DNA from: Favolaschia claudopus
Taxonomy: Eukaryota; Basidiomycota; Agaricomycetes; Agaricales; Mycenaceae
Direction of reading: 5' to 3'
DNA: 64,000 nucleotides
Assembly: GCA_037176885.1 (NCBI GenBank)
Contig: JAWWNJ010000123.1
Location: forward strand, 434,001 to 498,000
Shown here: positions 9,601 through 62,203 of the stretch, one piece after another
How the letters are laid out: each line of letters starts with the position of its first letter
How positions within the stretch are numbered: the first letter of the stretch is position 1
The notes under the pieces: model-generated
Seen by the model: only the letters and a program-made list of their open reading frames with translations
What the model was told of the DNA's origin: nothing
Database searches by the model: none
Position numbers and translations under genes: made by a program

Positions 9601-12456
9601 ACGATCATCCAGTGTCTCTTCAGGATTCCCTGAAAGCTTCAAACCGGAAATAATTGCAGGTTTGTCTTCATCATCAAAGCCATCAAACTCATCAATTTCA
9701 GAGTCGGAGTCGCTAACTGACATTAGCTCTGGCATATCCAAGTAGTCAGACATCGTTGGAAGGTGCTCTTCATGACCAGGTAAGTCCTCAACTTCTTCTG
9801 GTTCAATTTCTCTCTCAGATTCATCGCAGAATCCAGGAATTCTGAAGCAACGAGGGAGATCAAAGTCCCCATCATCCGAGTCCGAGTCCGACTCGTACTC
9901 TGAACCACTTGTCTCGAATAATTCAGGCAGGTCAACGAACTCGTCGTCTGACTCACTGGGCTCATATCCAGACGAACTAGATATCTCTGAGTCCGAATAG
10001 GAAGGTAAATCCGCAAATTTTTCAAGGTACCAGGCCGAGAGATCAAAGTCCCGGTTTTGCAGGAATTCTTTGGGAAGAATTTGCGGTTCGAGGTTTCGGA
10101 ATAAACTGGTGACAATGTAAGAGTCCTCGTTAAAAGATTCAACCCGAATCTTATTATCCTTGATCAAAGGACCTTCAATTTCTTGATCAACATCCTGTAG
10201 TATAAATGTTGCCATTGTTGCGAACATGTCTTCGGTTTCCGCAGTGTAGCGGTCTTCCCATTCAACATCCTCAGGATCAAGTCCTATAGCAAGCTGGCGC
10301 TCAATAGCATACCAGAGACCTATCTTGAAGTCTTCGTCAAACAAGAATTCCATTGGTAAGATCACATCCTCCATGGTTGAATTGTCAATGACAACATACT
10401 CAGTTTCCGAAGTCTCGTACACTTGAAATCGAGATTCTTCTTGACCCTCTTCGTCTCCAGGGTAAGGTTGAGCTTCCTGCAGTACAATGCGAACGAATCG
10501 AGCCACTAAATCGCCAATAGGTCGCGGTTTTTCCGGGTGAGAGTTGACAGTTTCCAAAATATTTATATCCTGGTTCCCGCCCTCCTCAGCTTCCATACGG
10601 AAACTCGCAGACCCCACGGGTAAGGTTTCCAACACTTCAGTCGTTGCTGAAAGTGCTGATTCGTTGGCGGTGCGCATTCGCGCTGCATGTGCGCCGAAAC
10701 CTGGAGGTTTACCCCTCTGGTTTGAATTCATGGTCGTCAACTTAGGGCAGTTGCGAGCCATATGGCCTGCCTCTTCGCAATTCAAGCAAAGCCCAGCAGC
10801 CATCAATTCGTTTCGACGTTTTGTCGACAATTTTCGGTCAGGGTATGTTCGTTTTCCCTTGAACTGGTTGTTATTAGAAGGCTTTGCCTTCTCATTGTTC
10901 GGTTTAGGTGAGTTCAACTTCACGGATGAAGTCTGGATCACCGGCTTCTTATAGAAGCGACCTCCACGTCCACGAGTGGGGGTTTTCAACGAGGAAGTAG
11001 AAGGTTTGCTCGCGCTCGCCTTCGGCTTATCGTCCTCGGGTCTACCGACCAATTTTTCAGCTTGTTCAGCTTCAACGACTACGTCGTCCCACGACGATAC
11101 TTCTGGATCAAGTTTCTGACGGGACATTTCTCTTTTGATGTCCTTGCGCAGACTCAACCAGAGTCGGGTAACCTTTTCCTGGTCATCCGGCAACCCAATC
11201 ATGGTATGTAGTTGCTCGTACTCAGCAATATGTTCGGTTACTGATTTTGAACCCTGGTAAAGTCCGTTCAGTTTGATACGTTGTTTCAACCTAAAGTCCT
11301 TAGGGAAACAATAGTTCAGAAGTTCGGTGAAGAATTTTGGTAAGGTCCACTGTTTCTCATATTTTACAACCTTCCGTTCGTAAAATTCGCCAGCTGATCC
11401 CGTCATGAAATAGCTGATGATGAAAATTTGGTCCTCTTTTGGAACTTTACCCATGGTAACATAGTTCGTGCTTTCACGCACAAACCGGAAATATGCATAG
11501 GAATTGACTGATCCGTCATATTTGGTAGGTGGGACCGGTTTCAAGGTCATCTTGGTAGACCGACGAGATTTTGATCTCGACCGGCGGTAGCCTTTCGCTC
11601 GCCGTGATTTGCTAGCTTTCCGCGAGTTGCGGGAATGGCTATGTTTATTTTTATGTTTGGGGGTATGCGACTTACGACGCCGTTTCGCAGACTTTCCAGA
11701 ATCGGAATCACTCTCGTCGGAGCTGGATGAACTCTGTGAAGTGCTGGACTCATCACCCGAATCAGACGAATCATCATCGGAGGAATCCGAGCTGGAACTC
11801 GATGAGCTACTAGAGCTTGAAGAGCTCGAGCTAGACGAAGGTGGAGAAGTATTCCGAGCGGCAGCCTCGCGAATAACATTATCGATAAATGTGCCGCCCA
11901 CAAGGGGTCTAGCAGGTGGGGAATCGGAGCGCTTCTTATCCTGTTTACCAGGATTCTTGGTGCGCATTTCCTTCCTAATACTTGATTCAACCGCTTCCTT
12001 CGAGCGGTTTCTAGCCTGTTTGGCTTGTTTCTTTCGAAGCAATTTAGCGGTGCGTTTATCTTCCGCTATTTTAGCATCTTTCTGACGCTTCTCCTCAAGC
12101 TTAATTTCCTTCAAGCGTTTCTGAAGGTTCACTTTTTCGTCTGAAAACGAAGTAGAGGTCTGGCCAGACACGGAGTGAGGGGGAGCAGAATTATATTCAG
12201 GTTTGTCTATTACAACAGTAGTGGATGAACTATCCGAAGGGACACTATTCACAGGTACATCCTGGAACAAGTCAGAAGGAGTTGAGATAGGCTCCTTCTT
12301 AATACGCTTAATTTCTTCAAAATTAGCGAATGCCGCGCGTTGTGCGTCAAGATCAGCCTCTGAGAACTGATCTGACCAATCGACCGCACCCCAGTTGAGT
12401 GGGTCCGGTCCTTTACCCTTGTTCGGCTTCGAAGGGCCTTCACCTCGAGAAGATTC
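6601..12456 (-). CDS. Ty3/Gypsy Gag-protease-RT-RNase H polyprotein
   Basis: The frame is open from after a stop at 12459-12457 with no ATG before about 12270, so the true start is lost, spliced or non-AUG. Numbering from 12270: a basic N-terminus; 17 consecutive serines and an SR/acidic tract (about 145-235); a retrotransposon Gag core (about 245-410, e.g. TKYDGSVNSYAYFRF); a CCHC knuckle CLNCEEAGHMARNC (about 495); then about 500 residues with four diverged copies of one module (see findings); an aspartic protease ARALVDSGSLGDLIS (about 1215); RT with LIDGQDAYEQI and VYLDDIIIYS (about 1535); RNase H with LVTDGSSSAIAGV, ITDHKGL and ENVLADALSR (to about 1810). Together these make virus-like particles, process the polyprotein and copy the RNA. 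It ends in a stop at 6601-6603 overlapping the integrase frame by 86 nt in the +1 register. Confidence 0.88.
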   Translation of the reverse strand, partial: ESSRGEGPSKPNKGKGPDPLNWGAVDWSDQFSEADLDAQRAAFANFEEIKRIKKEPISTPSDLFQDVPVNSVPSDSSSTTVVIDKPEYNSAPPHSVSGQTSTSFSDEKVNLQKRLKEIKLEEKRQKDAKIAEDKRTAKLLRKKQAKQARNRSKEAVESSIRKEMRTKNPGKQDKKRSDSPPARPLVGGTFIDNVIREAAARNTSPPSSSSSSSSSSSSSSSSSDSSDDDSSDSGDESSTSQSSSSSDESDSDSGKSAKRRRKSHTPKHKNKHSHSRNSRKASKSRRAKGYRRSRSKSRRSTKMTLKPVPPTKYDGSVNSYAYFRFVRESTNYVTMGKVPKEDQIFIISYFMTGSAGEFYERKVVKYEKQWTLPKFFTELLNYCFPKDFRLKQRIKLNGLYQGSKSVTEHIAEYEQLHTMIGLPDDQEKVTRLWLSLRKDIKREMSRQKLDPEVSSWDDVVVEAEQAEKLVGRPEDDKPKASASKPSTSSLKTPTRGRGGRFYKKPVIQTSSVKLNSPKPNNEKAKPSNNNQFKGKRTYPDRKLSTKRRNELMAAGLCLNCEEAGHMARNCPKLTTMNSNQRGKPPGFGAHAARMRTANESALSATTEVLETLPVGSASFRMEAEEGGNQDINILETVNSHPEKPRPIGDLVARFVRIVLQEAQPYPGDEEGQEESRFQVYETSETEYVVIDNSTMEDVILPMEFLFDEDFKIGLWYAIERQLAIGLDPEDVEWEDRYTAETEDMFATMATFILQDVDQEIEGPLIKDNKIRVESFNEDSYIVTSLFRNLEPQILPKEFLQNRDFDLSAWYLEKFADLPSYSDSEISSSSGYEPSESDDEFVDLPELFETSGSEYESDSDSDDGDFDLPRCFRIPGFCDESEREIEPEEVEDLPGHEEHLPTMSDYLDMPELMSVSDSDSEIDEFDGFDDEDKPAIISGLKLSGNPEETLDDRLSLLCQVLDFQDIPSSNFENKRLRSDRIGDLVAEGACAVLEFLQPYPGDELVEIDRPCRDKRRFYLDQVVDLQWTVWDEYFHEITIVPKGQLFDEEFEIAAWYASERLYQLERIAEPPRPLHQVPIDDLLCNGANQYLNERVEKYPELSTYQVRKKYPGLYIVSGASKRGPRWQLDLPEDYLMNWRFNFVNWIHRKRGKIELEESVRWNTFDAEDGFGYLYLLFETTYSAKEIRLFELIQSIEIERNTVEVELGRPSALPKLSYLLKMLADVQFENAIESSILYCGGIQVPADQVNGISRTACLPRVPDKIVAKPLIIVVHINGHPARALVDSGSLGDLISTSLADQLQLKRRELDEPIVLQLAVQGSRSKINHSVEVNFKYQDIDCPRTFYLANVSGYDLILGTAWLFQHQVNIGLNPARVCVGSAKCLPISRVATAKIYSHSAELADNVVQSARDELMEYAKPICKKAAETPLPPLRAINHTIPLIDEKKILPWRPSRCPEALRPQWDEKRRNYLKTGRWKVTSSGNTVPMLLIPKAKTNPPKLRTVVDLRARNKNTHKLSSPLPDMEGILRRVARCKYRSLIDGQDAYEQIRIIPEHVDRTTVTTPDGNMVSLVIQIGDCNAPATYQSLMNYLFSDFIGRFMDVYLDDIIIYSETLDEHIKHVKAIIDVLKRETLYLSEHKLQFLKPDMKVLGRIVDDDGIRMDPDKVDSVINWKTPTNRDLLRGFLGSIGYLADDLARIREPMGILHGLTGDTVPFRWGYTHQRAFEDCKQIAHQSREHRRVPLKYGPDADPAFLVTDGSSSAIAGVVSQGADWKSAKVAAFFSAKLNSAQQNYPVHEIEMLAGVEAMIRHRDILQGFHFQWITDHKGLIHFMNQKNLSGRQARWMEKISEFDFEVVYIPGTENVLADALSRIYSNEAPGTVRARSEYTYHDVVNNDALNINSISMPVFAGSEAKAIASDRVLRSATHAAEQQLKQKAAETYPRGSCFEVNDSWC
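11788..11838 (-). repeat. Polyserine tract in Gag
   Basis: Seventeen consecutive Ser codons use all six synonymous codons (TCG, TCT, TCA, TCC, AGC, AGT), so the tract is not a simple trinucleotide expansion. It is followed by an Asp/Ser acidic run and then an Arg/Ser/Lys run (KSRRAKGYRRSRSKSRRS), resembling the RS domains of splicing factors. Confidence 0.85.
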
Positions 12457-31245: not shown

Positions 31246-31603
31246 AAGGCGGCAGATTGAGTGTTAAGATTGTATGAGTAGAATAAGGGCTTTTCTCAAA
31301 TCGGTCACAATTCCCACACAGTATGTCCCTAATTCTTCATCTCCAAGGGGAAAATTCAGATTTTGGAAATGAGGAAGATGTCATCGGCTGAACCAGGCGT
31401 TGGGGCGGGAAGGCGGTGATTGGGGGAACAGTCGAGATGATGTGGTGTTTACAATTGCGTATCTCAGCGTATCTCCGAGCCATCGATGTGAAGGAGTTGA
31501 GGCGAGAGGAAAGAAAGCTGCAGTAGTCTCCCAAGTCAGACCATATATATCACGACATTATTTTTTTTAGAAATTTGTGACGGGAAAAAACGTAGGTTGG
31601 GTA
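31246..31603. other. No recognised gene; ends with a 9-bp target site
   Basis: After the Copia remnant no family can be read up to 31560. A T-rich run and a short GC-poor stretch precede GGTTGGGTA (31595-31603), the target duplication of the following MITE and also the end of the adjoining Helitron-like unit. Confidence 0.5.
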
Positions 31604-32118
31604 TAGTCTCTCGTAGACAGACGCTCTATATAATCTAGCTCGGTGCCCTCGCTATATAGAGTCTGTTGGTTACCGCGCCCCTGCAACCGCGTTAGGTTCT
31701 TATTAGCTAATCTTATATAAGCAGATTTCACGGCACGTATATCTCAATGGAAACTGATTTTTTGGCTTCAAAAACTTGGAGCAGGCTACATGCAATAAGT
31801 AAAGCTACATTTCTGTCTCCTCAGATTTTCCAAAATCAGACGGCGCACTACAGAAAACATTGTCGCGTCGTCATCACGTGCGGCTCGGGTGTTTCGGCCG
31901 AGATGAACAAATGCATTCAACATTAACTGAAACCACTTTAGAAATTCGGGAAACAAGGTAGAGATAATCACAGCCCTGTATGGAGTGCCTGAGAGCTTGA
32001 ATCATCCTCAAAATAGACCTGCGGAAGGGGGAAATGAGGTACCGGCAATGTCCGGCTTATATAAGATTACCTAATAAGAACCTGACGCGGTTCCAGGGGC
32101 GCGGTAAACATAAGACTA
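31604..32118. mobile_element. MULE-like MITE, copy A (515 bp)
   Basis: Starts TAGTCTCTCGTAGACAGACG and ends GTAAACATAAGACTA, flanked by a perfect 9-bp duplication GGTTGGGTA (31595-31603, 32119-32127). The left end contains an inner stem (AGACGCTCTATATA ... TATATAGAGTCT); the inner TIRs include GTTACCGCG near the left and CGCGGTAAAC near the right. Two more copies with the same ends lie at 58366-58871 and 61189-61723. Nine-base duplications and long degenerate TIRs suit Mutator-like elements. It has no coding capacity. It is inserted in the terminal motif of Helitron-like unit a. Confidence 0.85.
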
Positions 32119-32561
32119 GGTTGGGTATGCCGGTTCCCGCCGTACATGGTGGGGGAGCTTGCGTGGATTCTCGGTTTTTTGACATGGATATGGAGTTAGG
32201 TGAATGTAAGTAATAATGCATAGGGTCGGAGGGTCTCCGGACCTGATTCACTATGGGCTATTCAACTGTATTGTTACGGATGTATGTACTGTAAGGGTCC
32301 AATTTGCCCAAGTAAACGCCCCTATTACACAAATACGCAATCTGAAAATTTGATCCAGAATTATAATACCATACTTATCTTTCGAACAACACCTTGAGGC
32401 CACTTAAAGCAAGCATATCGAACAAAACAACCTTTGGGTCTGTCGAAATAGGTGCGAGATAATCGGAACTACGTTGCCATCACGCTGGATGAGTTCCCAT
32501 CACTTGGGATCAATTGCAATCACTCAAAATCCGCCGTGGATCACATGGAGAGGCGCCGCAC
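32119..32561 (-). mobile_element. Helitron-like unit a (short, non-autonomous)
   Basis: Read on the minus strand the unit runs from a CATCAC/GATCA-rich part (32561 down to about 32450), through a relic of helicase sequence (32280-32440, alignable to 33196-33370: ATACCATA..CTTTCGAACAACACC), to a 3' end with CACGCAAGCTCCCCC, an imperfect GC stem and CGGCATACCCAACCTA. It directly abuts the 3' end of unit b. The MITE at 31604-32118 sits in its last bases. Confidence 0.6.
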
Positions 32562-32747
32562 ATAGGTTGTGTATGCCGGTTCCCGGCGTACAGAGTGGGG
32601 GAGCTTGCGTGGATTCTCGATTTTTGGGACGATTTAGATATTGAAGCGAGGTGTATTGTTACCAAGATACAAATACGGACAAGTAGATTAGCGTGGTTGT
32701 ATACAAATATACGGTTTATCACAAGTAGATTAGAATCCAAGAAAATT

Positions 32748-33643
32748 TCAAGAAAACACGTATTCACTAACGTCAATGCCATCATCATTCAGAGTAAAAG
32801 CCAACTGCGCCTTCCGTTCAACATCAACCTCAAGCATCCGCATAGAGTCAGTTATATTGGCTCTCTTCAATCGTCCCCAATGGAAACTTGTTCGGAAAGC
32901 AATCCCTCCCAAAGTTTTCACACGTGAGATTGCAACAAATGAAAGGCCCGATGAGAAGTCCTTTTCACCGAGATCAACAATTGCTTTCTTGAGTGTCAAT
33001 CCCTGGCTTTTATGGATGGTGATTGCCCATGCTGTGGTCAGAGGCAGTTGTGTTCTTGAACTGTTCGATTTTCCCATCGAGCGGTGACCGGCACAATTGG
33101 AACCCAAGTGGGATCAGTTCCTGGCCAGTTCGGTAGAGGTGGGCCTACGCAGAGTATAGATAAGCCGACCATCAACAATCCAAACTGTAACTGACAATTT
33201 ACCGGAGTAAACACCCTCATTGCAATCCACAAATACTACCGCTGGAAGAACAATCTTCGGATCTGAGCCAGGATAATACCATATCTTTCGAACAACACCC
33301 TGGCGCCGTTCACCAGACCTGGTAAAAAAAAAGTCAGTTTTTGAAAGCAAGTGTCCTGAGCAAAGCTACCTTTGGAAGTCCAAACATTTCTTGTGATCAT
33401 GACTCTTGCCCCTTCCGCCATGAATACCTCCTTCTCCAAACCATCAGCATCTTCTTCGGATGCCTTTCCGGCTTCCGTGCTATTGTGTTTTGCCTTGCAG
33501 CGTACAACAGGGTTACCCAGATTTGATAGGCGCAGAATATTCAGACTCTTTACAAAGTCACGAGTGGGCAGAAGATGGAGAGTCTCATTGAAGTGCAGGT
33601 GGAAGTGAAAGTCACTGGACACCGTGCCGTCAGAGTGGTCCAA
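32748..33643 (-). pseudogene. Pif1-like helicase C-terminus of a Helitron
   Basis: The readable sequence begins LHLLPTRDFVKSLNILRLSN and continues EGARVMITRNVWTSKG, then after a probable intron (GTAGCTTTGC ... TTTACCAG, near 33375-33325) LVNGAR, a one-base frame break, VVRKIWYYPGSDPKIVLPAV, and finally LPLTTAWAITIHKSQGLTLK (motif V) and SFVAISRVKTLGGIAF (motif VI). The stop follows DDGIDVSEYVFS. Such helicases unwind DNA during rolling-circle transposition, fused to a Rep domain in full Helitrons. No Rep domain was found in the window. The copy is 5' truncated and frameshifted. Confidence 0.8.
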
Positions 33644-33932
33644 GGCTTAAGCAGCCAACTGATAGTTGGCTACAAGCAGCAAACTAAGGCCGCGCAGGTG
33701 GACTTCGCACGGGATTTCAGCTGCTACGAACACCCAAAAAGACCCTCAGAGAAAGTGGGCTTCTCACGTCCGATTAAACAGTCGTGATTCAGAGCCAAGA
33801 AACACCGAGATCTTCGACGCAGGCAGTCGTCGCAGACAAAGGTATTGACGTGGCAACGCGTGTTCCTGTCATATCACGCGGGACTGCGCCGCCGTTACGC
33901 AGGATCAACCTGGATCATTCAAATGTGTTAAT

Positions 33933-34632
33933 CAAGGGGTGATCTGTCAAGCGCCATCAAAGATGAGGCCTTGCAGTATGCTCGTGTTTGTCAAAGACGT
34001 TCAACCACTTGCGCTCACTTAGACGCGAGCTGCCCTCGCAAATTAAAGTATTTGGATGCTCCCTTATGCTTCTGGGTACATTTATAGGGATATAGTGCCA
34101 CCTTGAAATTTCTTCCGGGCACATTCTTTTTTCGAGTGTGTTATGTGGGTCAGACCCACCACACCACAAAACATCCTCTGTGGCCCTTTTTTTGCGCTCT
34201 TTTTAGTGGTCATATCATAATATGGCTCAATAACACTCGACTTGACATATTTCAGCTCAATAAACCCCACGTAGAATATACAGGGAGGATGGACGGTGAG
34301 ATCAACGCCCATCATAAACACGAGCATACTGCATGTTGTAATTATTGATTAGAGATACAGCTTCGGCCTTCGGGCACGCTTACTCAGTCTTGACTCACAA
34401 TAGACATTGCAGGTATTCTGTAGTTACTTGTAGAATATTCTAGATACTTTAGCCAGCAGTATATAAGCCCCCCTGTACTTCCTGCTAGAGCATCTGATTG
34501 CTCTAAAGCAGCCTTCTAACCAAACAGTGCTATTGCAATCTATTTTACTCTCATCCTCTAATCTCGCCCTCCCCGCTTAATCTACAACATGCAAGGCCTC
34601 ATCTTTGATGGCGCTTGACAGATCACCCCTTG
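33933..34632. mobile_element. hAT-like MITE interrupted by a solo LTR
   Basis: Ends CAAGGGGTGATCTG ... CAGATCACCCCTTG with TIRs of about 57 bp and a perfect 8-bp duplication GTGTTAAT (33925-33932, 34633-34640), the hAT hallmark. The right TIR is split by the LTR at 34334-34589; without it the element is 440 bp and the two TIRs match through GCAGTATGCTCGTGTTT. No transposase frame. It is inserted in Helitron-like unit b. Confidence 0.83.
34334..34589 (+). repeat. Solo LTR nested in the hAT-like element
   Basis: A 256-bp segment with TGTTGTAATTATTG at the start and TAATCTACAACA at the end (TGTTGT/ACAACA), flanked by TGCA on both sides (34330-34333, 34590-34593). It splits the hAT TIR exactly. 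A TATA box (CAGTATATAAGCC) lies near 34458. These fit a solo LTR left after LTR-LTR recombination; strand is set by the TATA box. Confidence 0.75.
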
Positions 34633-34929
34633 GTGTTAATCACATGGGACAGCTCCGTATCATTCGGGAGATCGTCTTATCACGGCGCAAGACGGCGCCG
34701 TGCGATTGACAGCAGCCATCACAAGCTCAAGCACAGCCCCATTCCCATTTGCTGTCAGCCTTGATAAAAGGGGGAGCAAGCTCCCCCAATCAGTCAAGGT
34801 ATGCCAGTCTTGACGTGCACGTCAAAGGCGGCGATCCACAGCAGCCATCACAAGCTCAAGCACAGCCCCATTCCCATTTGCTGTCAGCCTGAAGCTCCCC
34901 CAATAAAAGGGGGAGCAAGAATGTGATAT

Positions 34930-36476
34930 AAAGCCGGTGCCCGGCCTACAGGTGGGGGGAGCTTGTGTGGATTCTCGTTTCTTTGGGACAATGCAGATAC
35001 GGAGTTAGGTGCATTGTTACGGATACCTACTCTATATATGTAGATCACAATTCAAGAGAATTTCAAGAAAACACATCCTCACTCAGGTCAAGACCGTCAT
35101 CAATCAGAGTAAAAGCTAACTCCACCCTGCGTATGCGCAAGGCTGATTTTGAGGGAAACAGTATCATCCCCAATATATAATGGGAAAAAGTAATCCCTTG
35201 CAAAGTTTTGACACGTGAGATTGTCACAATTAAAAAGAAAGCCCATTGAACCTATTTGCGAATGCCTTCTGGAGTGTCAATCTTTTAAGGGCGGTGATTG
35301 CCTATGATTGCCCATCCAGTGGTGAGAGTTCTTCAACCAGCCCAATTGGAACCCAGGTGGATTGCTGGCCAGGTGGGTAGAGGCGAACTGGCACGTACAG
35401 TGGCCGCAGAGAACATTGCAACATGGTGTTTTGAATGTTTGAGGGGGTCTCTGGGCTCAAACAAAGTTCGGGACACGAAATATGAATGAAATGGAAATTT
35501 TTGGGCGAGTTAGCCCATTACCATATATGGTAATTTGAGTGCAATGAATTTTTGAAGGTATTTATTTTCGGGGCACTTTTCAGTGCGACACTTCAGTGAA
35601 AAACAGTCTTCATAGGATAAAAGTACTCGTTGATGCAACCTCAGTCATATATTACTTTACCTAGTTTACTGCAGATTTGAGTCCGCAATAACCGCTGCAA
35701 GATGGCAATTTTGACCAAAAATGCAAAAATCCTGAAAATTTGGTCAAAATTGCCATCTTGCAGCGGTTATTGCGGACTCAAATCTGCAGTAAACTAGGTA
35801 AAGTAATATATGACTGAGATCGTATTAACGAGTACTTTCATCCTGTGATGGCCGTTTTCCCGTAGTGTTTAGTGCTGAAAAGTGTGGTGTAAAAAAATAC
35901 ATTAAAAAAATTCACTGTACTTCGATTACCATATATGGTAATAGGGTAAGTGGCCCAGAAAATTTCATTACACTCATATTTCATGTCCAGAACTTTGTTT
36001 GAGCCCAGAGACCTTGTTGATGACTCAAACCATCATGTTGCAATGTTTTCTGCGGCCACTGTATAGAGTAGGTAAGCAGTTAAAGAATCAACCTCTAATT
36101 TTACCCCCTTATTCCACAAACGAGTCGACTGCTGGAAGGACAATCTGCAATTTGATCCAGGATAAGACACACCATATCTTTAACAACACCTTGTCCGCTA
36201 CTCACCAGACCTCGCAAAGCCAATGAAAGCAAGTACATATGACCAAAACAACCTTTGAATCTGTCAAAATAGTTGCAAAATCATCGGAACTACGTTGCCA
36301 TCACGCTGGATGAGCTGCCATCACTTGGGATCAACTGCAATCACTCAAAGCCGCCGTGGAAAGGCGCCGCATCAGTCAAGGCATGCCAATCTTGACGTGC
36401 GCACGTCAAAGGCAGCGATTGACAGCAGCCATCACAAGCTCAAGCACAGCCCATCACCATTTGGTGTCAGCCTGGA
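34930..36476 (-). mobile_element. Helitron-like unit c, split by a foldback MITE
   Basis: On the minus strand it ends with CACACAAGCTCCCCCC, the stem GCCGGGCACCGGC and TTTATATCAC. The helicase tail can still be read (ELAFTLIDDGLDLSEDVFS, stop near 35060), and upstream CCACCTGGGTTCCAATTGG matches the corresponding place in unit b. The 664-bp MITE at 35398-36061 sits between two parts that align continuously to unit b (its site is GAGTATAGATAAGCC near 33156). The 5' part (36280-36476) is CATCAC-rich and shares its junction with the helicase relic with unit a. Confidence 0.6.
35398..36061. mobile_element. 664-bp foldback TA-MITE, copy 1
   Basis: Begins CAGTGGCCGCAGA and ends TCTGCGGCCACTG, flanked by TA on each side. 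The two halves are inverted copies along most of the length; the central arms 35641-35717 and 35741-35817 are perfectly complementary over 77 bp with a 23-base loop. The word ATTACCATATATGGTAAT occurs in both halves. TA duplication and CAGTGGC ends are those of Tc1/mariner-type elements. It has no coding capacity. Confidence 0.88.
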
Positions 36477-36793
36477 CATAGGTTGTGTATGCCGGTTCCC
36501 GGCCTACAGGAGGGGGAGCTTGCGTGGATTCCCGATTTTTGTTTGGACAGTGTGAGAATTGAAGGCCGGTTACGAAGATACGAGTACAGGATATTGGCAA
36601 GTGGATTTGAGTGGTGGTTGTATACAAAAATATACAGTGGTTCACAAGTCAATCTGAATTTCAGCACAAAGAGAGCTTTTGTGGCCAGAGTGCGAGTGCT
36701 CAAAGCTCGGCCCTGAGAGGATCCTCATGTCCGGCGGGGGCTGATTAGGCAGATACTCTAGAACATTGGTTGGAGATTAAGAACGGTCGGATA

Positions 36794-36963
36794 CTGTACC
36801 AATCTGTATGACTGAAACGCAATATGGACCGTTACAGGCTGAAACGACTGAAACGGCTTACAAATCACCCTTTTACGGAAGGTGACTTGCCATATATGGG
36901 TGATTTGTCAGCAGAAACGGGTCTCCGTTACGCGTTACGTTTCAGTCATACAGATTGGTACAG
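36794..36963. mobile_element. 170-bp TA-MITE
   Basis: Perfect inverted ends CTGTACCAATCTGTATGACT plus GAAACG (26 bp) flanked by TA (36792-36793, 36964-36965). The interior repeats GAAACG and GTGATTTGT-type words but encodes nothing. Confidence 0.85.
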
Positions 36964-37000
36964 TAATAGTGCTCCCAAATTGGGATGCTTAGACTACCTA

Positions 37001-37664
37001 CAGTGGCCGCAGAAAACAATGCAACAAGGTGTTTTGAGGCACTGACGGTGTTTTTGGGCTCGAACAAAGTTTATCACATGAAACATGGGGGAAATGAAAT
37101 TTTTTGGGCCGATGATACAATTATCACCAATTACCATGTATGGTAATTGTACCGGAGTAAATTTTTTAATGTGTTTTTTTTACACCACACTTTTCAGCGC
37201 TAAATCCCACTGGAAAATGACCATCATAGGATGAAAGTACTCATAAAAGCAATCTCAGCCATATATTACTTCACCTTGTTTGCTGCAGATTTGGGCTCGT
37301 AATAGGCGCTGCGAGATGGCCATTTTGGCCTAAAATGCCAAATTTATTCAAAAAATGGCCAAAAATGCCATCTTGCGACAGTTATTGTGGCTCAAAACAG
37401 TAGCAAACTAGGTCAAGTAGAATATGACTGGGGTCGTATTCCCGAGTACTTTCATCCTATGGAGACCGTTTTTCAGTTGGGTGTAGCATTGAAAAGTACC
37501 CTGAAAATAAATGATTTAAAAAATTCGTTGCACTTGAATTACTATATATGGCAATGAGGTGAGTTGCCCAAAAAAATTCATTTCACCCATATTCCGTGTC
37601 AAGGACTTAAAAGACCCACTCATTGTCTCAGAACCACGTGTTGCATTGTTTTCTGCGGCCACTG
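37001..37664. mobile_element. 664-bp foldback TA-MITE, copy 2
   Basis: Same length and ends (CAGTGGCCGCAGA ... TCTGCGGCCACTG, TA flanks 36999-37000 and 37665-37666) as copy 1, and homologous throughout, including a central inverted pair at about 37262-37440. It is clearly more diverged: the central arms contain many mismatches. Confidence 0.86.
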
Positions 37665-37666
37665 TA

Positions 37667-38310
37667 TGATAGCGGACCGAACTTCGTGACAAGCCAGATA
37701 CCTAATTTGGAAATTGTTACTGTGCCCTCAGTTTTTACCCAGTGGCATTGAAACTGTGCAGAAATGACCATAAGAAGGAAGACTAGAGATCCCCCGGGTC
37801 AAAAGTCTCAAAATCCACAAAATCATTTCTTCTTCCACGGATTTCGCGCTTTCGGTCCGGGCCGAGACATAGCCGGTGGCTGTACGATGCCATCAGCGCA
37901 TCAAATATGTCTGCCGCACCACTGAACCTTCACCAAATCTCAACCAAATCCAAGGGACTTCTACTATGGATGTTTGCTGGGTCAGAATTGAGCTACTGAC
38001 CAACTTCAGGCTATAATCCGATGGTTTTCTTCCGGAAACCTGAAGTTAGGTACACACACTTTTGAAATTTTGCGCAAAAATTTCGCGCTTTTCTAACCCT
38101 AGACTAGGGTTTCTCCGTTTTCTCTGAAATGCGAATTTTGCCTATAAAACCCACCCCAAGTTCCTGCTAAATCTCAAGTTTCAAAGAATTTTGGCCAAAA
38201 TTCCGGCTTGATATGAAGTTGTGTCTGCTATCATACATCTTGTGCGCCAGCCAGACCTGGTAAAAACAGGCCGTCTGACTGCCGCAGTCATCTACTGTAT
38301 GTTGAATCTG
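37667..38310. other. No recognised gene
   Basis: AT-rich sequence between a MITE and the repeat blocks of Helitron-like unit d. No frame of note. Two TTCCGG...CCGGAA-type short palindromes were seen, nothing else. Confidence 0.5.
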
Positions 38311-38650
38311 TTAAATTACGTGCGACATCACTCGGAACTAAGATGCCATCACGCTGGATCAGCTCCCATCACTTGAGATCAGCTGCAAGTGCCGCATCAG
38401 TCGAGGCATGCCAATCTTGACGTGCGCACATCAAAGGCAGCGCTTGACAGCAGCCATCACAAGCACTCGTCAACATACGTGCGACATCACTCGGAACTAC
38501 GTTGCAATCACGCTGGATCAGCTGCCATCACTCAGGAACGTCGCGGATCACCCGGAAAAGCGCCGCATCACGCGGAGACGGGCCACATCAGTCAAGGCAT
38601 GCCAATTTTGACGTGCGCACGTCAAACGCAGCGATTGACAGCAGCCATAT

Positions 38651-39950
38651 AGATCTATGATTTGACCGAGTTTTTTTAATTTTGAAAAACTGAAAAAGAT
38701 AGGTGTCAGCCATAAGGTCTATCTCAGCAGCGAAGTCATTTTTTCAAAATCCCTTCCGTCAAATCCTAGGTTTTGATGTTCTGAACAATTTTGTCTCCGA
38801 GAGTTGGTGTGCCGAGGGCGGCACGGGCAGGAAAACTTCGTCGCGTCCTGTCACTCCGTGGCCGCACCGAGAGTGTGACATAGCGTGACAACGACTCCGA
38901 TTTTCTTCTCTTTCGCGGTACTAGTAATCTCCTACATTTGCACAAAGTTTTTGATGTGGCTGCTGCGAGACCGAACAACGCTGGATTCTTGAACCAAGTC
39001 GGTAAATGTCGATCCATACATGTCAATGCCTACCCTGATTATTCTCAGATTTTTCTGTGGCCCATGGAGGGCGTCGTGAGGATGCCGCTCGAGAAGGTCA
39101 AAACACCACATCTGCACAAAAAGTTTGGCGGGTGATTGGCAGGCGATCAATTTTGACCTGCCGAGATCAAAATTCGACCTTTGATTTTACTTGCGCTCTA
39201 ATGGTCACCAGATAATCTAGGAAGCGGGCAAGAGGTAAGCGGAAATAAAGTTTCCGACATCAACCTCAGAAAGTTTTGACATGCTGTGCCCCCAAGGGAG
39301 GGAGGGAGGGTCCGGATCATTAGAATACAAACGGTCCGTCTACCCGCACCCTCCTCATTTCCGAGGGGTCGGGTGAAATCGGCATCAAGTCGGGAGTGAG
39401 TTTTTGGGGAGGGTTTGTCATGAGTCTTACTTCACCATCAATAAATCATTCTGCTTGTTGGAAAATGGTGAAGGGATATAATAATATTCTGAGTAGACAG
39501 AAGTGCGAGGAATATAAGAAAATGGGAGGGTACGCCAAAATTTGGAGCATTTTGGAAAGAAGCGGAGTCGCCACAACAGAGTCGATGATTTGACCTGTTA
39601 AAAGCGGGTCATCAATGACAGCTTCCTTTTTTGGGGGAAGGGGTCAACGAGGTCCTGTGTGCCCACGGGAATTGCCGCTACCTCTTGGAAGCGGGCGAAT
39701 TCCTCAGGCCGTTACAAGATGGTTCCCAGATTTATCTCAGAGCAGCACAGTCAATAACGATGGCGTAGGATGGAATTTGTGCAGATGTAGGTGCTTTGGC
39801 AGTTGTGGGAGATTACTAGTACAACACAAAATATTTTATTTCAGACCTCTCGAGACCATTACATGTCCCATTTCTCTCAAATCCAAGCCCTATATCTGCT
39901 GTATACCTCGTGCAATGCTTGATGGGTTTTCTCTACAGAATGGCCTGTAG
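38651..39950. other. No recognised gene
   Basis: Short frames only, none resembling a known family. A local GGGAGGGAGGGAGGGT run lies at 39294-39311, which could form a G-rich structure. The words TTTTGACCTGCCGAGATCAA and a partner TCAAAATTCGACC lie near 39150. The block ends at the short repeat copy that begins about 39955. Confidence 0.45.
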
Positions 39951-40821: not shown

Positions 40822-41992
40822 ATGACCAATGGTATCCCACAAGATCCCGAATTCCAAGCGGAAGACGTCGCCGCACTCCAAGAAATGGTTAAGAAGTATG
40901 TTGAAGGCGAAGTCACCCGCGTTCTCACCATTGCTTCGCTCTCTGGCCACCTTGTCTCCGCATGTGGAAAGCTCCAGACGCCGTACAAGCCCGAGCTCCT
41001 CGTCCCATACCTTGAGGCAACTCGATGCTCACGATGCCGCAAACAAGCCTGATGGCGGCTCAGGCGGGAGCGGCGGGCCCTCGGGCGACATCGAGTCTGG
41101 GGACGAACCAGACACCGATGGTCGCCTAAACGGCGCGCTGGTGCCGACGACTATGGAGACGAAGAGCGGAGCTCGCGGAAGATCCCAAGGTCGACGCCTC
41201 GCAGTACGCCTGGCGCTCCGAGGCCCGACAATTCCTCGAGTCCATCACATCACACCCGAGCATAAGGAAACCTTCGCAGGGTCGACATCCACTCGAAGGA
41301 TATCAAAGAAGCCGTCCGCGACGCCAACTAACTCTGCTGCAGCGCCTGCGCTCCCCGACGTTCTCTGGAAGCCCGTCCTCCTCGACCGCTTCGTTGACTT
41401 GACGTCATCCTGGCAAACACGTTCGCTACTACGGACGCGGAAGAATCGCAGCAGCTTGTCGTTGGTGACTCCTACCTCGAGATCACGAAACCTAAGGTGG
41501 TTTCGAAAGTCACCACTCACGGCCAGTGGATCAACGCGTTCCGTGTCTGGGAAGACGCAGTCCAACTTTGCTTTCCCCGGGCGATCAATGGAATTGCGCA
41601 CCTACTGGGGCCATCTCAACGACCTTTTCAACAGCCGGCACCAGTCAATCCATGCCCGCATCATCAACTATGATCGCGCGGGCGCGCGTCTTTGTCGGGC
41701 AACGGCGAGACGTCCTCTTTCAATGAACCCCACAGGTTCCGGACACATTCTTAATGCCCATATCACCGAAGGAGGTGTTGCTGTTGTCACCAACTCGCTA
41801 TCCAGCGGATCCCATAATAAGCCCAAGTCCAACAATAAACAGCGTAAACGAACTGGGGAAATTTGCCGCAACTACAATAACAACCGTTGCAAGGCAGGGG
41901 ATGGCTGTAACTACCGCCACGCCTGCATCGAGTGCAACGCGGCTGGTCACCCGGCCTCAGAATGCCCTGGGAAACAACGCCGTGCAGCTTGA
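40822..41992 (+). pseudogene. DIRS-like element Gag with CCCH and CCHC zinc fingers
   Basis: The ATG at 40822 begins MTNGIPQDPEFQAEDVAALQ; the frame shifts after about 70 codons (near 41020) into the frame carrying a Gly/Ser linker (GGSGGSGGPSGDIESGDEPD). A typical Gag-like stretch is readable across another shift near 41490-41600 (THGQWINAFRVWEDAVQLCF; ELRTYWGHLNDLFNSRHQSI; NYDRAGARL). The C-terminus holds a CCCH finger CRNYNNNRCKAGDGCNYRH directly followed by a CCHC knuckle CIECNAAGHPASEC, stop at 41990-41992. It should bind and package element RNA. At least two frame breaks make it a pseudogene. Confidence 0.7.
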
Positions 41993-44069
41993 GCTATCCG
42001 CTGGCAGCCGACGCTGTTAGAACGAAGCGTTGGCAAGAAGTTGCTTGTCTCGAAGGGGACCTAGAGTCGGAGGACGAGTTCTTGGATGATTCGGATGGCG
42101 TTACTTTCCTGCCAAAATACATGCGAGGCATGGGCTGGAACGACCGTCGGCTTCTGAATTACAGTCGCACGGCACGTTACACAGAGATAGACGAACCTTT
42201 GCCTCGGCCGTCGGCTCACGAGTTCAAAAACGAGATAGCCATGCGCACCATCCGCGAGAATCCCGATTTCTTCTAAGTCCCAAAGTTATTCGCGTTGAAC
42301 GTCTTGAGAATCTTCTAAGACGCCATCCGAATCAAGCTTTCGTCCGGTCCGTGTCGTGTGGATTGCGAGAAGGTTTCTGGCCCTGGTGTGGATCCCAGCC
42401 CTCTTCTGACTACCCCCCGACATGGGATAAATTCATGGGCCCCTCCGGCTTGGATTCCGTGAAAGAGACTTCATAAATTCTCAACGAGACATTGAGGATC
42501 AAAAGAATAGATTCTCTCGCACCTTTGGGCCTGATCTACTCCCTGGCATGTATTCTACGCCCATCCTCGCAGTCACTAAACCCCACTCCGATGACCTTCG
42601 CTTGGTTTCTCACCAACGTTGCGGATCCTTCTCGCCAAACACAATGGTTGATAAGCCCAAAACAAAAGGCGCTAGGATGGACACAATGCAGCAGTTCATT
42701 CCTGCGCGACTGCGTTTCCGTCGGAGCATCCCAATGCCCGGCTCGTGGTATGGAAGTCGGGACGTTTCAGAGGCGTTCCGCCTCCTGCCTGTCCATCCAT
42801 TAATGCAGACTAAAACAAGTAGCGACATCTAACCTACCAACGAAGAGCCGAAGTGCAATCAGGGACGTCGAGCGGCCCGTTCAACGCAATGTGGATTGGT
42901 GCTGCACCTTTGGAAATTGTGGCTCTCCGAGAATTTGGGCGTCGTTGATGGGGTTGGTGGTTTGGATCGCTTTGTTTGTCAAAAACCTCGAAGACATCTT
43001 CTGCTATGTTGATGACAACTTCGGCTGGGAACTCGACCACAAATTTCATGCTTTTATCGCCCATACAACAAGACGCCTCCCCACAAAGCAAGTGAAGCTT
43101 TTACTCCTCTGGGGATTTCCTCGGCATCCCCCACAAAGAGAAGAAAACAATTACACGGCTCGTCTCTCCCCATCATCGGCTTCGAATCGACTCCAACGCG
43201 ATGACGGCTACTCTTCCTCCGGAATCGAAGGCGGACCTCGAGAGTTGGTTCAGCAATTCATTGACACACCGTCCACAACGCCGCACACTCCGTGAATTCC
43301 AGTGCTTGGACAGGGTGGATCAGCTGGTAATTCAATATGTTCTTCCTTCTTCGTCCCGCTCTCTCCAACGTCTACAAAAAGATGTCCGGCAAGTCCAATC
43401 AACAGGCGCTCGTCTACATCAACACCGCGATTAAGTCCGACTTGTCTTGGTTCCTGCGCCACCCCGGACAGCCCGACGGTGCACTACCCCCCGAAGCCCT
43501 GGACCGGAACCCCCCCCACAGAGGCCGATGCGACACCTTACCGTGATGCGCCGTTGGGAGGAATGGGCTTTTGGGCACCTGAGCTTCTGCTAGGTTTCTT
43601 TGCACCTGTTCCTTTGCAGCCTCCGAATGATACCATACTTTTCTTTGAGGCCTTGTGCGTCGTTTCAGCCTCGAGGTGGTACTGTTCCACATGCGGTGTG
43701 CTGCCTAACGGACGTAAACAACGCCTCACCATCTTCACTGATAATCAAAATACAGTCGACATCTTTAACTCTCTGAGCGCCTCTCCGGAGTACAACTTAC
43801 TCCTTCGTACCGCCGTCGATGACCTTTTGGCTCATCACATTGATCTTCGAGTCTTGCACATATCTGGAAGCAACAATGTCGTGGCGGATGCGATTTCCCG
43901 CAGTTGGTTTTCTGCAGCCGTTGAAGCAGCCCCTGGCCTCGTCATCCAGGACTTTGAACCCCCTCGAGAGCCGCTGGAGCGGCGTCATCATGATCCGATC
44001 CCGAGTTCAGTCCAGGCCGCCCGCGCGGCAAGCCTGGACTATGGAGCAATTGGTGCAAAAGCGTGCTAG
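41993..44069 (+). pseudogene. DIRS-like RT and RNase H, heavily frameshifted
   Basis: Fragments in order: GMGWNDRRLLNYSRTARYTE; GLREGFWPW; LLPGMYSTPILAVTKPHSDD; WYGSRDVSEAFRLLPVHPLM (first catalytic Asp); WCCTFGNCGSPRIWASLMGL; DIFCYVDDNFGWELDH (YVDD box); then a thumb region; and RNase H with GMGFWAPELLLGFFAPVPLQ, ILFFEALCVVSA, LTIFTDNQNTVDIFNS and VLHISGSNNVVADAISRSWF. The order after Gag and before a recombinase fits DIRS. There are at least five frame changes, so it is long dead. Confidence 0.72.
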
Positions 44070-59489: not shown

Positions 59490-59722
59490 GAGCTCAGTTG
59501 GCCTTTACTCTAAATGCTGATGGCATTGACCTCAGTGAATATATTTTTTCTTGAAATCTTCTTGAATTCTAATCTACTTGTGATACACTGTACTGTATAT
59601 TTGTATCCTCATAACAATACACCTCACTTTTCTATCTATATTGTTGTAACAAATACGGGATCCACGCAAGCTCCCCCAACCTGTAGGCCGGGCACCGGCA
59701 TACACAACCTACGTTGGGGGAG
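59490..59722 (+). mobile_element. Helitron-like 3' end, fifth copy
   Basis: Plus-strand copy of the 3' part of the Helitron-like units: helicase tail LNADGIDLSEYIFS with its stop near 59566, the spacer, then CACGCAAGCTCCCCCAACCT, the stem GCCGGGCACCGGC and ATACACAACCTACG. It is directly followed (59725-59890) by sequence matching, in inverse complement, the 5' side of unit b (GTATCATTCGG..., GGCGCC palindrome), i.e. again 3' end against 5' side. Confidence 0.65.
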
Positions 59723-60185
59723 CTTGCTGTCCGAGAGACACCCAATGTTGATGCGGCTGTGCTGAGCAGGTGATGGCTGATGTCAATCGCACGGCGCCGT
59801 CTGGCGCCGTGATAAGACTTTCTTCCGAATGATACAGAGCTTTCCCGTGTGATCCACAGCAGTCCCGGAGTGATATTACAGTTCGCGTCACCACTTCCCA
59901 ACTACCGCTTTTGGTGGTGATTGATGGCAACACTGAAAACCTTTCTCGGGCCGAGGAAATACCCTGATTTTCTCACAAAGTGTGCCAAACGACTTGTATT
60001 GATTGTAGCTATCTGGGTTATAAAGGGTTAAAGCCTAGGATCAATTTTCACTTTTCCGACCCAAGAAAAGTGACCGATTGCACAGCCACACAGCGATAGC
60101 CGGCCTCCAGAGGATCGGCTAAGGTAAAATCAGTGATGTTTTTACGCACAATGCATATTTGGAGCGTATTTGAAGGCCCAGAACC
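59723..60185. other. Helitron-like 5' side, then no recognised content
   Basis: 59725-59895 is the 5'-like module mentioned under the preceding feature. After that no element is recognised. AAAAGTGACCGATT occurs at 60067 and again at 60233, inside the first readable RT exon. Confidence 0.4.
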
Positions 60186-62072
60186 GCGGAAAAGGCAAAA
60201 AAAATTAAGGCAAAAGTGAAGTGGCAGGCTGAAAAAGTGACCGATTACGTAAGAAAAACATATCACTCCTACCCACTCCTCACTCTCTTGTCTATCATTC
60301 ATCCTCCTAATTTTTACCCTTTTTTCAGATTGCAAGCGCTCCGGACGGAACACAAGCCTGCGCCTTTGATATCAAATCCTTCCACCGTACATGTCCGGTC
60401 CTTCCTGACCACAAGCCATTCCTCGTCGTCTCTTTCAACGGTGGTTTCTTTTTAGATCATTGCCACCCTTTTGGCGCCAGACCGGCCAGCAGCAATGCTG
60501 GGCAGATCTGTCGAGCCACAATCGATATCTGGAATGCAGAGACAATTAACGACACCGCAACCTTCGGTTATGAAGACGACTTACTCAAACTCCGCTTCCC
60601 TTACGCCACCGGCCCCGACGGCGGTCTCCTTTACCGCTTCGATCGCGCTTCATGTCTAGCCCCCATCGACCCTCTGAACGTTCCGTGGCATCCAACCAAA
60701 ACCGGCACCACTTTCACGGAGAACATAGTCTTCCTCGGTTTTGACTGGGATCTCGGGCAACGACGAGTTTTACTACATGAACCAAAGCGCATCGTCTACC
60801 TTCAACGCGTCACAGACATGCTAAACGGCGCTCGACGATCCCACTCCGCGCATTACAGAAGCTCCACGGTACCCTCTGCCATATAACATTCATCTTCCGC
60901 GACGGAAGCTCCCGCCTTCCCGCTTTCTCCAACGCGTTCTCTCACTACAACGGCAATGACGCCATGACTCGTTTCCTCCCAAGCGCCGTCGTGGATTCGC
61001 TCAAATGGTGGCACCGCAGACTCGAGGATCCTTTTGCATTCCGGCAACTACGACCTATCGGCCCTCTGCGAAATGAACACATTTTTGTCGACGCCTCAAC
61101 CTCCTGGGGTCTAGGAATTGTCATCGGCCGCCACTGGTATTCATTCAAATTGGCGGAGGACTGGAGAGCGCCGGAGCGTGGGATTTGTTAGTCTCTCCTA
61201 GACAGACGCTCTATATGAACGCTCGTACCTCGCTATATAGAGTCTGTTGTTTACCGCGGGGGTCGGATCGTGCAGCCGGACTATTAGGTAATCTTACGTA
61301 CCTCGGAAATGGCCGGCATTACTGATTTTTGTTCAACTCTCCTTCTTCCTCGACGCATCTGGCCCTCATAGGAGTCCATATGTAGTTCAAAGTACAGCTT
61401 GGTCCCTTTGCTGTGTTTCTTTCAATTTTTCTGGGGCAACTTGAAGGAGAACGGAATCCAACGCTGGTGGCCTATCAATCTTCGGCCGAAGGTCCGATCC
61501 TGCTGGTGAGAGTCATCGGCAGCAATTTAGGTGCACTTTACCTGGCATTTCAAAATTTTGAAGAGACAGAAATGTAGATAGGATGCCTATGTGATACTCT
61601 GTTCAAGATTTTTGGCAATAAACACGTGTTTGAGGGACGAACGACGCGACTCGGAATGAACTTACGTAAGATTATCTAATAGTCCAGCTACGCGATCGGA
61701 CCCCCGCGGTAAACACAAGACTAGGGATTTGTTGGCTCGAGGCCATCGCCATCGAACTCTTGTACCATTTCCTTGTTCAACTGGGCTACCGTGACGTTCA
61801 TCTCCTCATACACTCCGACAACAAGGCGGCCATCGGCGCCCTCACTAAATCTCGTAGCCCCAACGCTCATCTCAACCTTTTGCGCCCGGCGATCATTCGC
61901 GATAGCGGCCGATCACATGATCGTGCCGAAACTTATTTACGTTGACTCTCACCTCAACGACGCCGACGGCCCCTCTCGTGGCAAGTCGTCTCTCCCTCTC
62001 CATCGTCGCCTCGCCCGCAATTTCGAACTACCTGACGACCTCGCATCCCTGTTCGTCCCGGGCGATTGGTGA
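60186..62072 (+). pseudogene. Second DIRS-like RT-RNase H, one intron, MITE insertion
   Basis: The first readable exon ends KWQAEKVTDY; an 82-bp intron (60249-60330, GTAAGA...TTTTCAG) joins it in phase to IASAPDGTQACAFDIKSFHR (first catalytic Asp). Then VVSFNGGFFLDHCHPFGARP, FGYEDDLLKLRF (YEDD box, 60569-60580), VPWHPTKTGTTFTENIVFLG, FDWDLGQRRVLLHEPKRIVY, a frameshift near 60835, KLHGTLCHITFIFRDGSSRL, and RNase H starting NEHIFVDASTSWGLGIVIG. A MITE (61189-61723) then splits the RNase H; beyond it GICWLEAIAIELLYHF, LLIHSDNKAAIGALTKS and DSHLNDADGPSRGKSS complete the D-E-D-D set; stop 62070-62072. The 5' part of the gene and any Gag were not recognised. Confidence 0.75.
61189..61723. mobile_element. 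MULE-like MITE, copy C (535 bp), inside RNase H
   Basis: Ends TAGTCTCTCCTAGACAGACG and GTAAACACAAGACTA, flanked by a perfect 9-bp duplication GGGATTTGT (61180-61188, 61724-61732). The inner TIR arms (GTTTACCGCGGGGGTC ... GGACTATTAG, and the complement at 61670-61716) match over about 57 bp with few mismatches. Its removal with one duplication restores the RNase H reading ...RAPERGICWLEAIA.... Confidence 0.9.
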
Positions 62073-62203
62073 CTCGCCGCCTCCTCCTTATCATGTCTCA
62101 GGATTGTCCGCCCGGCTATACTAGGTAAGTTTCGACGTCCGGCGCGCCACCGCAGACCCTCATCGGCCTCAGATACTTTTCAGTTACTCGCTCCCAATAT
62201 CTC

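What the first reader, a model, noticed from the sequence alone, without database searches (positions are those of the whole stretch)
32119..38650. Head-to-tail run of Helitron-like units
Four copies of one 3' end (CACGCAAGCTCCCCC, GCCGGGNACCGGC hairpin, ATACACAACCTA) lie on the minus strand at about 32120, 32562, 34935 and 36477. In three junctions the 3' end of one unit directly touches the CATCAC-rich part of the next. Units a and c share the same fusion of that part to a helicase relic, so it is a family structure and not chance. Tandem Helitron arrays are known from rolling-circle models but rarely seen this plainly with five later insertions on top.
Basis: partly seen in the sequence, partly recalled or inferred. 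Interest (0 to 1): 0.75.

Follow-up and report, generated by a model that had tools for sequence, protein, structure and literature searches.

The report
Jumping DNA nested in its kin
This stretch, probably from a fungus, is a nest of mobile DNA elements (a non-standard kind of Helitron) that landed in the front parts of their own relatives at a short preferred target; it looks like a tandem array, but the best-resolved join is an insertion inside another copy rather than rolling-circle tandem copying.

Summary
The repeated 3' end is real: four copies on the minus strand between 32117 and 36526. It is a true terminus of a dispersed family: 325 exact matches to a 3' core pattern and 911 to a 5' hairpin in a 264-Mb assembly. 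The termini are not those of a standard Helitron. Copies start TGGGGGAGCTTGCTCCCCC, carry the inverted 12-mer and a second hairpin near the 3' end, end CCTAYGT or CATAGTT, and insert after TNAT without target duplication (797 of 911 hairpins follow TNATT; 4 empty sites read). That matches FoHeli1/2 Helitrons of Fusarium (PMC5148889). The window is best read as a nest: unit c (34788-32560) sits inside unit b at CTGAT|GCGGCG, and b's joined halves match an uninterrupted relative. Another junction enters a relative at TTTTAT|CCAGG, 25 nt inside its 5' end. The 3' end at 32117 is split by a later 512-bp insert; the terminus is at 31590. Rolling-circle tandem copying is not needed here and does not predict internal joins, though joins elsewhere could fit it. 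Known kind, new member; modest interest.

The parts
36476..38653 (-). Unit a: CATCAC(GTGATG)-rich leader with internal repetition (38648-38582 like 38457-38391), later inserts, and an intact 3' end terminating at 36476 (..CCTATGT). No 5' tip was found upstream.
34933..36475 (-). Unit a': starts at CCAGGCTGACA, which in complete copies stands 25 nt inside the 5' end (after TTTTAT); leader, helicase relic, palindromic insert, 3' end truncated just after the hairpin.
   Evidence: (host site printed as 24)
34789..34919 (-). Left part of host unit b: doubled, degenerate 5' tip (CTTGCTCCCCCTTTTAT then TGGGGGAGCTT, 34919-34892) and body up to target CTGAT.
32560..34788 (-). Unit c, inserted in b: complete 5' hairpin TGGGGGAGCTTGCTCCCCC, leader, hAT-like insert, helicase C-terminal relic (33646-32751), 3' end ..CCTATGT at 32560.
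31590..32559 (-). Right part of host unit b: resumes at GCGGCGCC directly after c; 3' end split by a 512-bp insert, end ..CCTACGT at 31590.
32151..32165 (-). 3' subterminal arm of the asymmetric inverted repeat in unit b (GCAAGCTCCCCC); counterparts at 32597-32611, 34955-34969, 36512-36526.
31605..32116 (.). 512-bp insert with partial inverted repeats (63 bp, 90%) inside b's 3' tail; ATACCCAACCTA (12 bp) on both sides.
33933..34632 (.). Insert in unit c, CAAGGGG..CCCCTTG inverted ends (43-bp identical arms), ATTAACAC (8 bp) on both sides: hAT-like by these marks (label recalled, no call).
35398..36061 (.). Palindromic insert, CAGTGGCCGCAGAAAAC-type ends, flanked by TA, in unit a'.
37001..37664 (.). 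Relative of the previous insert, flanked by TA, in unit a.
36792..36965 (.). Small inverted-repeat insert (GTACCAATCTGTATGACTGAAACG-type ends) in unit a.
59653..59760 (+). Separate family 3' end (..CCTACGT at 59714) abutting a 5' tip TGGGGGAGCTTGCT (right arm lost) with 0 bp between.

Best explanation
The region is a nest of deletion derivatives of a Helitron2-type (FoHeli1/2-like) rolling-circle transposon family. SHOWN: the family starts TGGGGGAGC.. and ends ..CCTAYGT or ..CATAGTT, and inserts after TNAT without target duplication; unit c is an insertion in unit b at CTGAT|; the 36476 junction lies exactly after a TNAT (TTTTAT) of a family 5' end. INFERRED: the nest grew because the family's own leader (GTGATG repeats, TTTTAT after the tip) and its 5' junction (a TNAT stays beside every insertion) offer fresh TNAT sites; where the outer tip of the older copy is missing, either the composite was later mobilised from the inner 5' end past the inner 3' end, or the stretch between two TNAT sites was lost on insertion. 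Rep and helicase were supplied by another element; the copies here hold only helicase relics.
For: 3' ends: 325 exact matches genome-wide, 0 for the reversed pattern, solitary copies with unrelated flanks. 5' ends: 27 of 30 correctly oriented tips in fetched loci follow TNATT, one TNATC, two follow another 3' end; genome-wide 797 of 911. Empty sites: joined flanks of 14 two-ended copies searched, 4 (L011, L020, L022, L027) found uninterrupted elsewhere at 98-99% (only 40 of 1946 candidates were scored, so the 10 without a match say nothing); four fetched examples show TNAT^N and no duplication. Nesting: b's joined halves align without a break across CTGATGCGGCG with L005, and with unit a' (which has a small gap further on). 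Junctions: of 52 distinct 3' ends in fetched loci, 10 run same-strand into a family 5' region, at host position 0 (4), 25 (3), 47 (2) and 301 (1); all 6 internal sites follow a TNAT (position 47 read from the L064 leader). Five more run into opposite-strand 5' regions. On C3, C14 and C18, 9 of 74 neighbouring TNATT-tips lie within 1.5 kb against 1.19 expected at uniform random; none of 10,000 simulations reached 9, largest 7. Coding relative: L098 holds a Rep stretch, a helicase C-terminus 81% identical to the window's and a variant family 3' end.
Against: Two intact 5' tips within 30 nt, expected from insertion at TTTTAT of an older tip, were found 0 times. In the two position-47 junctions (L005, L064) the host's first 47 nt are not left of the inserted unit, so simple nesting alone does not explain them; for 36476 no outer tip was found either. 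Among 30 loci picked only by the 3' pattern (L009-L038), the 4 self-insertions were all opposite-strand, so no same-strand bias is shown; of the 9 close tip pairs 5 are same-strand. The 52-end set is biased: some loci came from junction-containing queries. Close tip pairs could partly reflect uneven spread along contigs. Four junctions at position 0, including 59714 in the window, fit rolling-circle tandem copying equally well. No autonomous copy with both termini was found.
Confidence: 0.78

Rival explanations
1. Rolling-circle concatemer: one transposition event copied the element several times around a circle or bypassed the 3' stop, leaving head-to-tail units that were later cut up by insertions.
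For: Units in one direction; position-0 joins exist (59714 in the window; L005, L069, L070). Tandem Helitron arrays in bat and silkworm are attributed to end bypass in PMC4067079 (passage).
Against: c interrupts b with b continuous in a relative. Junctions at 36476 and 32560 are internal to the host 5' region. Units differ in length and content. In L069 the first unit starts like the L032 leader while the second matches that leader at only 83% over 95 nt, so they are not twin copies, and the first unit follows TGAT.
Confidence: 0.12
2. Target-tip replacement: insertion into a relative's 5' end uses two TNAT sites (outer flank and TTTTAT or GGTGAT inside) and removes the stretch between, so the newcomer replaces the older element's 5' tip.
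For: Positions 25 and 47 both follow TNAT and make up 5 of 10 same-strand junctions; in the 2 with a readable left side the host tip is absent while a TNAT flank is present.
Against: The same picture results if a nested composite was later mobilised from the inner 5' end. c in b shows no such loss.
Confidence: 0.25
3. Deletion of the 5' palindrome from ordinary position-0 tandem junctions produced the 36476-type joins.
For: The tip is a perfect hairpin, and damaged tips are seen at 34919-34892 and at 59715.
Against: Random deletion would not be expected to end exactly after TTTTAT in 3 junctions and after GGTGAT in 2, with the upstream 3' terminus intact in each but one single-letter change (L005 minus strand, CCTACGC).
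Confidence: 0.1

Closest known systems
FoHeli1/FoHeli2 (Helitron2-type Helitrons of Fusarium oxysporum; PMC5148889: outline and abstract, sections 6, 10, 12, 16 and passages read)
   Same: 12-bp asymmetric inverted repeat that is itself a hairpin at the 5' tip; its 3' copy 38-51 bp from the 3' terminus there, 36 nt here; insertion after TNAT; multiple 5' termini and self-insertion reported or proposed.
   Different: Terminal sequences differ (TGGGGGAGC.. and ..CCTAYGT/CATAGTT here; TCAG.. and ..ATTTT there); the complete copies read here are short (540-1304 bp); GTGATG-rich leader; no full autonomous copy tied to the ends.
HINE/DINE-1 and Helentrons (PMC4067079, passages read)
   Same: Subterminal inverted repeats of 12-15 bp, palindromic in HINEs, near the 5' end and 38-60 bp from the 3' end; 3' palindrome; no target duplication.
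   Different: They insert in TT or T-rich DNA; Helentrons carry an endonuclease domain (not tested here).
Canonical Helitrons, e.g. HELPO1/2 of Pleurotus ostreatus (PMC4289320, passages read)
   Same: 3' hairpin near the end, Rep/helicase source, no duplication.
   Different: They have T[C/G] 5' and CTRR-type 3' ends and AT insertion; this family has neither end.
Tandem or clustered Helitrons in bat, silkworm and maize (PMC4067079) and three in tandem in Metarhizium acridum (PMC5148889), passages read
   Same: Units side by side.
   Different: Here at least one unit is inside another, with the uninterrupted site found in relatives.

Membership tests
Helitron2 / FoHeli1-2 type | Asymmetric terminal inverted repeat | tested here: met
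   5' GGGGGAGCTTGC, 3' GCAAGCTCCCCC 36 nt from the end
Helitron2 / FoHeli1-2 type | Hairpins at both termini | tested here: met
   GGGGGAGCTTGCTCCCCC and GCCGGGNACCGGC, by complementarity of the letters; not folded by energy
Helitron2 / FoHeli1-2 type | Insertion after TNAT, no target duplication (FoHeli1/2) | tested here: met
   797 of 911 tips; 4 of 14 joined-flank queries found empty sites, the 4 fetched show no duplication
Helitron2 / FoHeli1-2 type | Rep plus helicase protein in the autonomous copy | tested here: inconclusive
   L098 has a Rep stretch (PF14214 25.2 bits, cutoff 28.9), helicase C-terminus and a variant 3' end read by eye; it is broken into several frames
Helitron2 / FoHeli1-2 type | RepHel groups with Helitron2 in a tree | not tested
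   No reference Helitron2 proteins were fetched
Canonical Helitron (Helitron1) | 5' TC and 3' CTRR ends | tested here: not met
   Starts TGGGGG, ends CCTAYGT or CATAGTT
Canonical Helitron (Helitron1) | Insertion between A and T | tested here: not met
   Site is TNAT|N; with the one ambiguous T it could be written TNA|TN
Helentron | Insertion in TT | tested here: not met
   Empty sites TTCAT|CACGG, TTAAT|TAAGG, CATGAT|TTGG, CTTAT|ATAG
Helentron | Endonuclease domain | not tested
   No intact coding copy in hand
Rolling-circle tandem array | Each 3' end joined to an exact 5' end of a like unit | tested here: not met
   None of the three junctions of the finding (36476, 34933, 32560) does so; 59714, outside it, does

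The most novel reading that the evidence does not exclude
The family builds its own head-to-tail arrays: its GTGATG-rich leader and TTTTAT-ended tip are landing sites for its own Rep, and insertion there swaps the older element's 5' tip for a complete new element, giving composites [new][old minus tip] that grow at the 5' side and keep a working 3' end.
Probability: 0.22. Interest if true: 0.55.

Novelty: new member of a known kind. Interest (0 to 1): 0.36.

Why it matters
It adds a family with FoHeli-like termini and the TNAT target, which PMC5148889 describes in Pezizomycotina, with 911 exact 5' tips in an unnamed, probably fungal genome whose closest named Rep relative is from Pleurotus. 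It also shows, with an uninterrupted relative, that a run of same-direction Helitron units can contain targeted self-insertion. Tandem Helitrons have been attributed to rolling-circle copying past the stop (PMC4067079, PMC5148889 passages); this case says to check for interrupted hosts first.

Tried and rejected
Tried without success or against my reading. Two intact 5' tips within 30 nt: 0 genome-wide. Linking the strong Rep at C52:969-971 kb to the family, because a family 3' end follows a helicase end about 11 kb downstream on the same strand: set aside, since of the 120 listed relatives of that Rep only 13 matched the window's helicase at E up to 1, 12 of them at 35-47% over 45-49 aa and one at 52% over 23 aa, and no family 5' tip was found upstream to 974200. 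None of the 20 fetched Rep loci (1.5 kb each side) carried the tip on the Rep's strand; one imperfect hairpin lies on the opposite strand in L084. TNAT enrichment in leaders: 255 forward against 208 in shuffles over 29 leaders of 450 nt, 211 on the other strand; clear only in a group that I chose for its TGAT, so not claimed as proof. Rows dropped: 15 of 52 ends had a forward match; L010 (low-complexity match, 98% over 121 nt on the other strand), L024, L030, L054:1461 and L060 were dropped as not at the junction, leaving 10, of which 59714 aligned only from base 25 and was kept by reading its letters. In one search, 30 of 60 rows are the palindrome read on the other strand. My 3'-end motif scan did not call the L098 end; arm and hairpin were read by eye. 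Literature: six searches; in the listings I saw no other paper on TNAT insertion or self-insertion of such elements than PMC5148889; most subscription papers are not held.
Full report
Observation. The 3' core occurs on the minus strand at 32151, 32597, 34955 and 36512 and once on the plus strand at 59663; nine matches at up to 3 mismatches against 1.58 expected, largest of 100 shuffles 6. The ATACACAACCTA tail is intact at 36479 and 32563, changed by one letter at 32117, and absent at 34933.

True ends. Exact matches to the 3' core pattern number 325 in the 264,566,041-base assembly, the reversed control 0. Lined up, solitary copies keep identity 3 nt past CCTA (CCTACGT or CCTATGT) or through CATAGTT/CATACTT in most rows, then diverge; a few have damaged tails (L026, L032). 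Scanning the same loci for the arm's inverse gave the other end: TGGGGGAGCTTGCTCCCCC. Of 30 tips in proper orientation, 27 follow TNATT, one TNATC, and two follow another unit's 3' end. Genome-wide the tip hairpin occurs 911 times and 797 of them follow TNATT. Flanks of 14 two-ended copies were joined and searched; four gave uninterrupted places at 98-99% identity, the other ten gave none among the 40 candidates scored. Four fetched examples, one per copy, align with one surplus T in my joins, so the element is TNAT^TGGGGG...CATAGTT^ without duplication, one T being ambiguous. The L020 empty site lies itself in a family 5' region, 97 nt from the tip and in reverse.

The nest. Unit c starts after CTGAT at 34789 and ends at 32560. 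Joining what lies on either side gives ...CCTTGACTGATGCGGCGCC..., which aligns without a break across the joint with L005 (contig C54) and with unit a'. So c is an insertion in b. Unit a ends at 36476 and touches CCAGGCTGACA, which in complete copies stands behind TGGGGGAGCTTGCTCCCCCTTTTAT, 25 nt. The same join occurs on C3 (L054) and, with CCTACGC for CCTACGT, on C54 (L005/L053). Two further joins (L005:279, L063/L064) fall behind GGTGAT at position 47 of the L064 leader. Four joins are at position 0: L069, L070, L005:1563 and 59714 of the window. Unit b carries a doubled, degenerate tip (34919-34892), like the multiple 5' termini of FoHelis (PMC5148889, section 10). Its 3' tail is split by a 512-bp insert with ATACCCAACCTA on both sides.

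Missing outer tips. If an element simply landed at position 25 or 47, the older tip should stand to its left. The older leader does stand left of c in b, but not left of the units in L005 or L064, and no pair of intact tips within 30 nt exists. Either composites were mobilised from the inner 5' end (PMC5148889, section 16, proposes composite FoHelis by self-insertion, though with two 5' and one 3' terminus), or the tip between two TNAT sites was lost. I cannot decide.

Self-preference. On C3 (taken as 2.1 Mb), C14 and C18, 9 of 74 neighbouring tips lie within 1.5 kb, 5 of them same-strand; 1.19 expected, maximum 7 in 10,000 simulations. In 30 loci chosen by the 3' pattern alone (L009-L038), 4 copies sit in a family 5' region, all in opposite orientation. 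Self-insertion is thus frequent, but an orientation bias is not shown.

Coding capacity. Window pieces within 33646-32751 read as a helicase C-terminus (one piece with two weak Pfam helicase matches below cutoff, the other pieces none). Copies 80-81% identical occur in six places; one (L098) has a Rep stretch, the helicase end and a variant 3' end, in several frames. Of 95 relatives of that Rep stretch the best named one is from Pleurotus djamor (58% over 83%); others named include Lyophyllum, Lentinula, Mycena and Russula, but also Rhizophagus, Cetraspora and a conifer. A mushroom-type host is therefore likely but not shown; the assembly is unnamed.

Verdict. A FoHeli-like, Helitron2-type family that nests in itself at TNAT. 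The tandem-array reading is replaced by nesting for c in b and weakened for 36476 and 34933; position-0 joins elsewhere remain open.

Noticed in passing
Assembly G000, contigs C1-C20: The first 100 listed of 911 tip hairpins fall mainly on C3 (first 2.1 of 3.4 Mb), C14, C18 and C20; C1, C10 and C13 have one each, C4 four within its first 90 kb, and C2, C5-C9, C11, C12, C15-C17 and C19 none. Primase PF01896 was found on C4, C12 and C22 only. Two genome compartments, or a mixed assembly?
   Followed up: partly
L063 (C14:1851652-1854729) and L064 (C4:29539-32616): A 50-nt stretch tested lies at the same offset in both: a duplicated stretch or haplotype copy.
   Followed up: no
L054 (C3:1418983-1422054): Several family ends in both orientations within 3 kb (two 5' tips, four 3' ends): a second dense nest.
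   Followed up: partly
C151:147905-154089, C181:153479-159860, C189:52288-55655: Family-like helicase fragments lie about 3-6 kb upstream of Rep (PF14214) matches on the same strand, the reverse of the usual order: possible head-to-tail coding copies.
   Followed up: no
window 40826-44069 and 60311-63393: ORFs resembling a tyrosine-recombinase (DIRS-like) retroelement; read by eye, label recalled.
   Followed up: no
window 3813-12456: Long reverse-transcriptase/integrase ORFs, Ty3-like by eye, label recalled.
   Followed up: no
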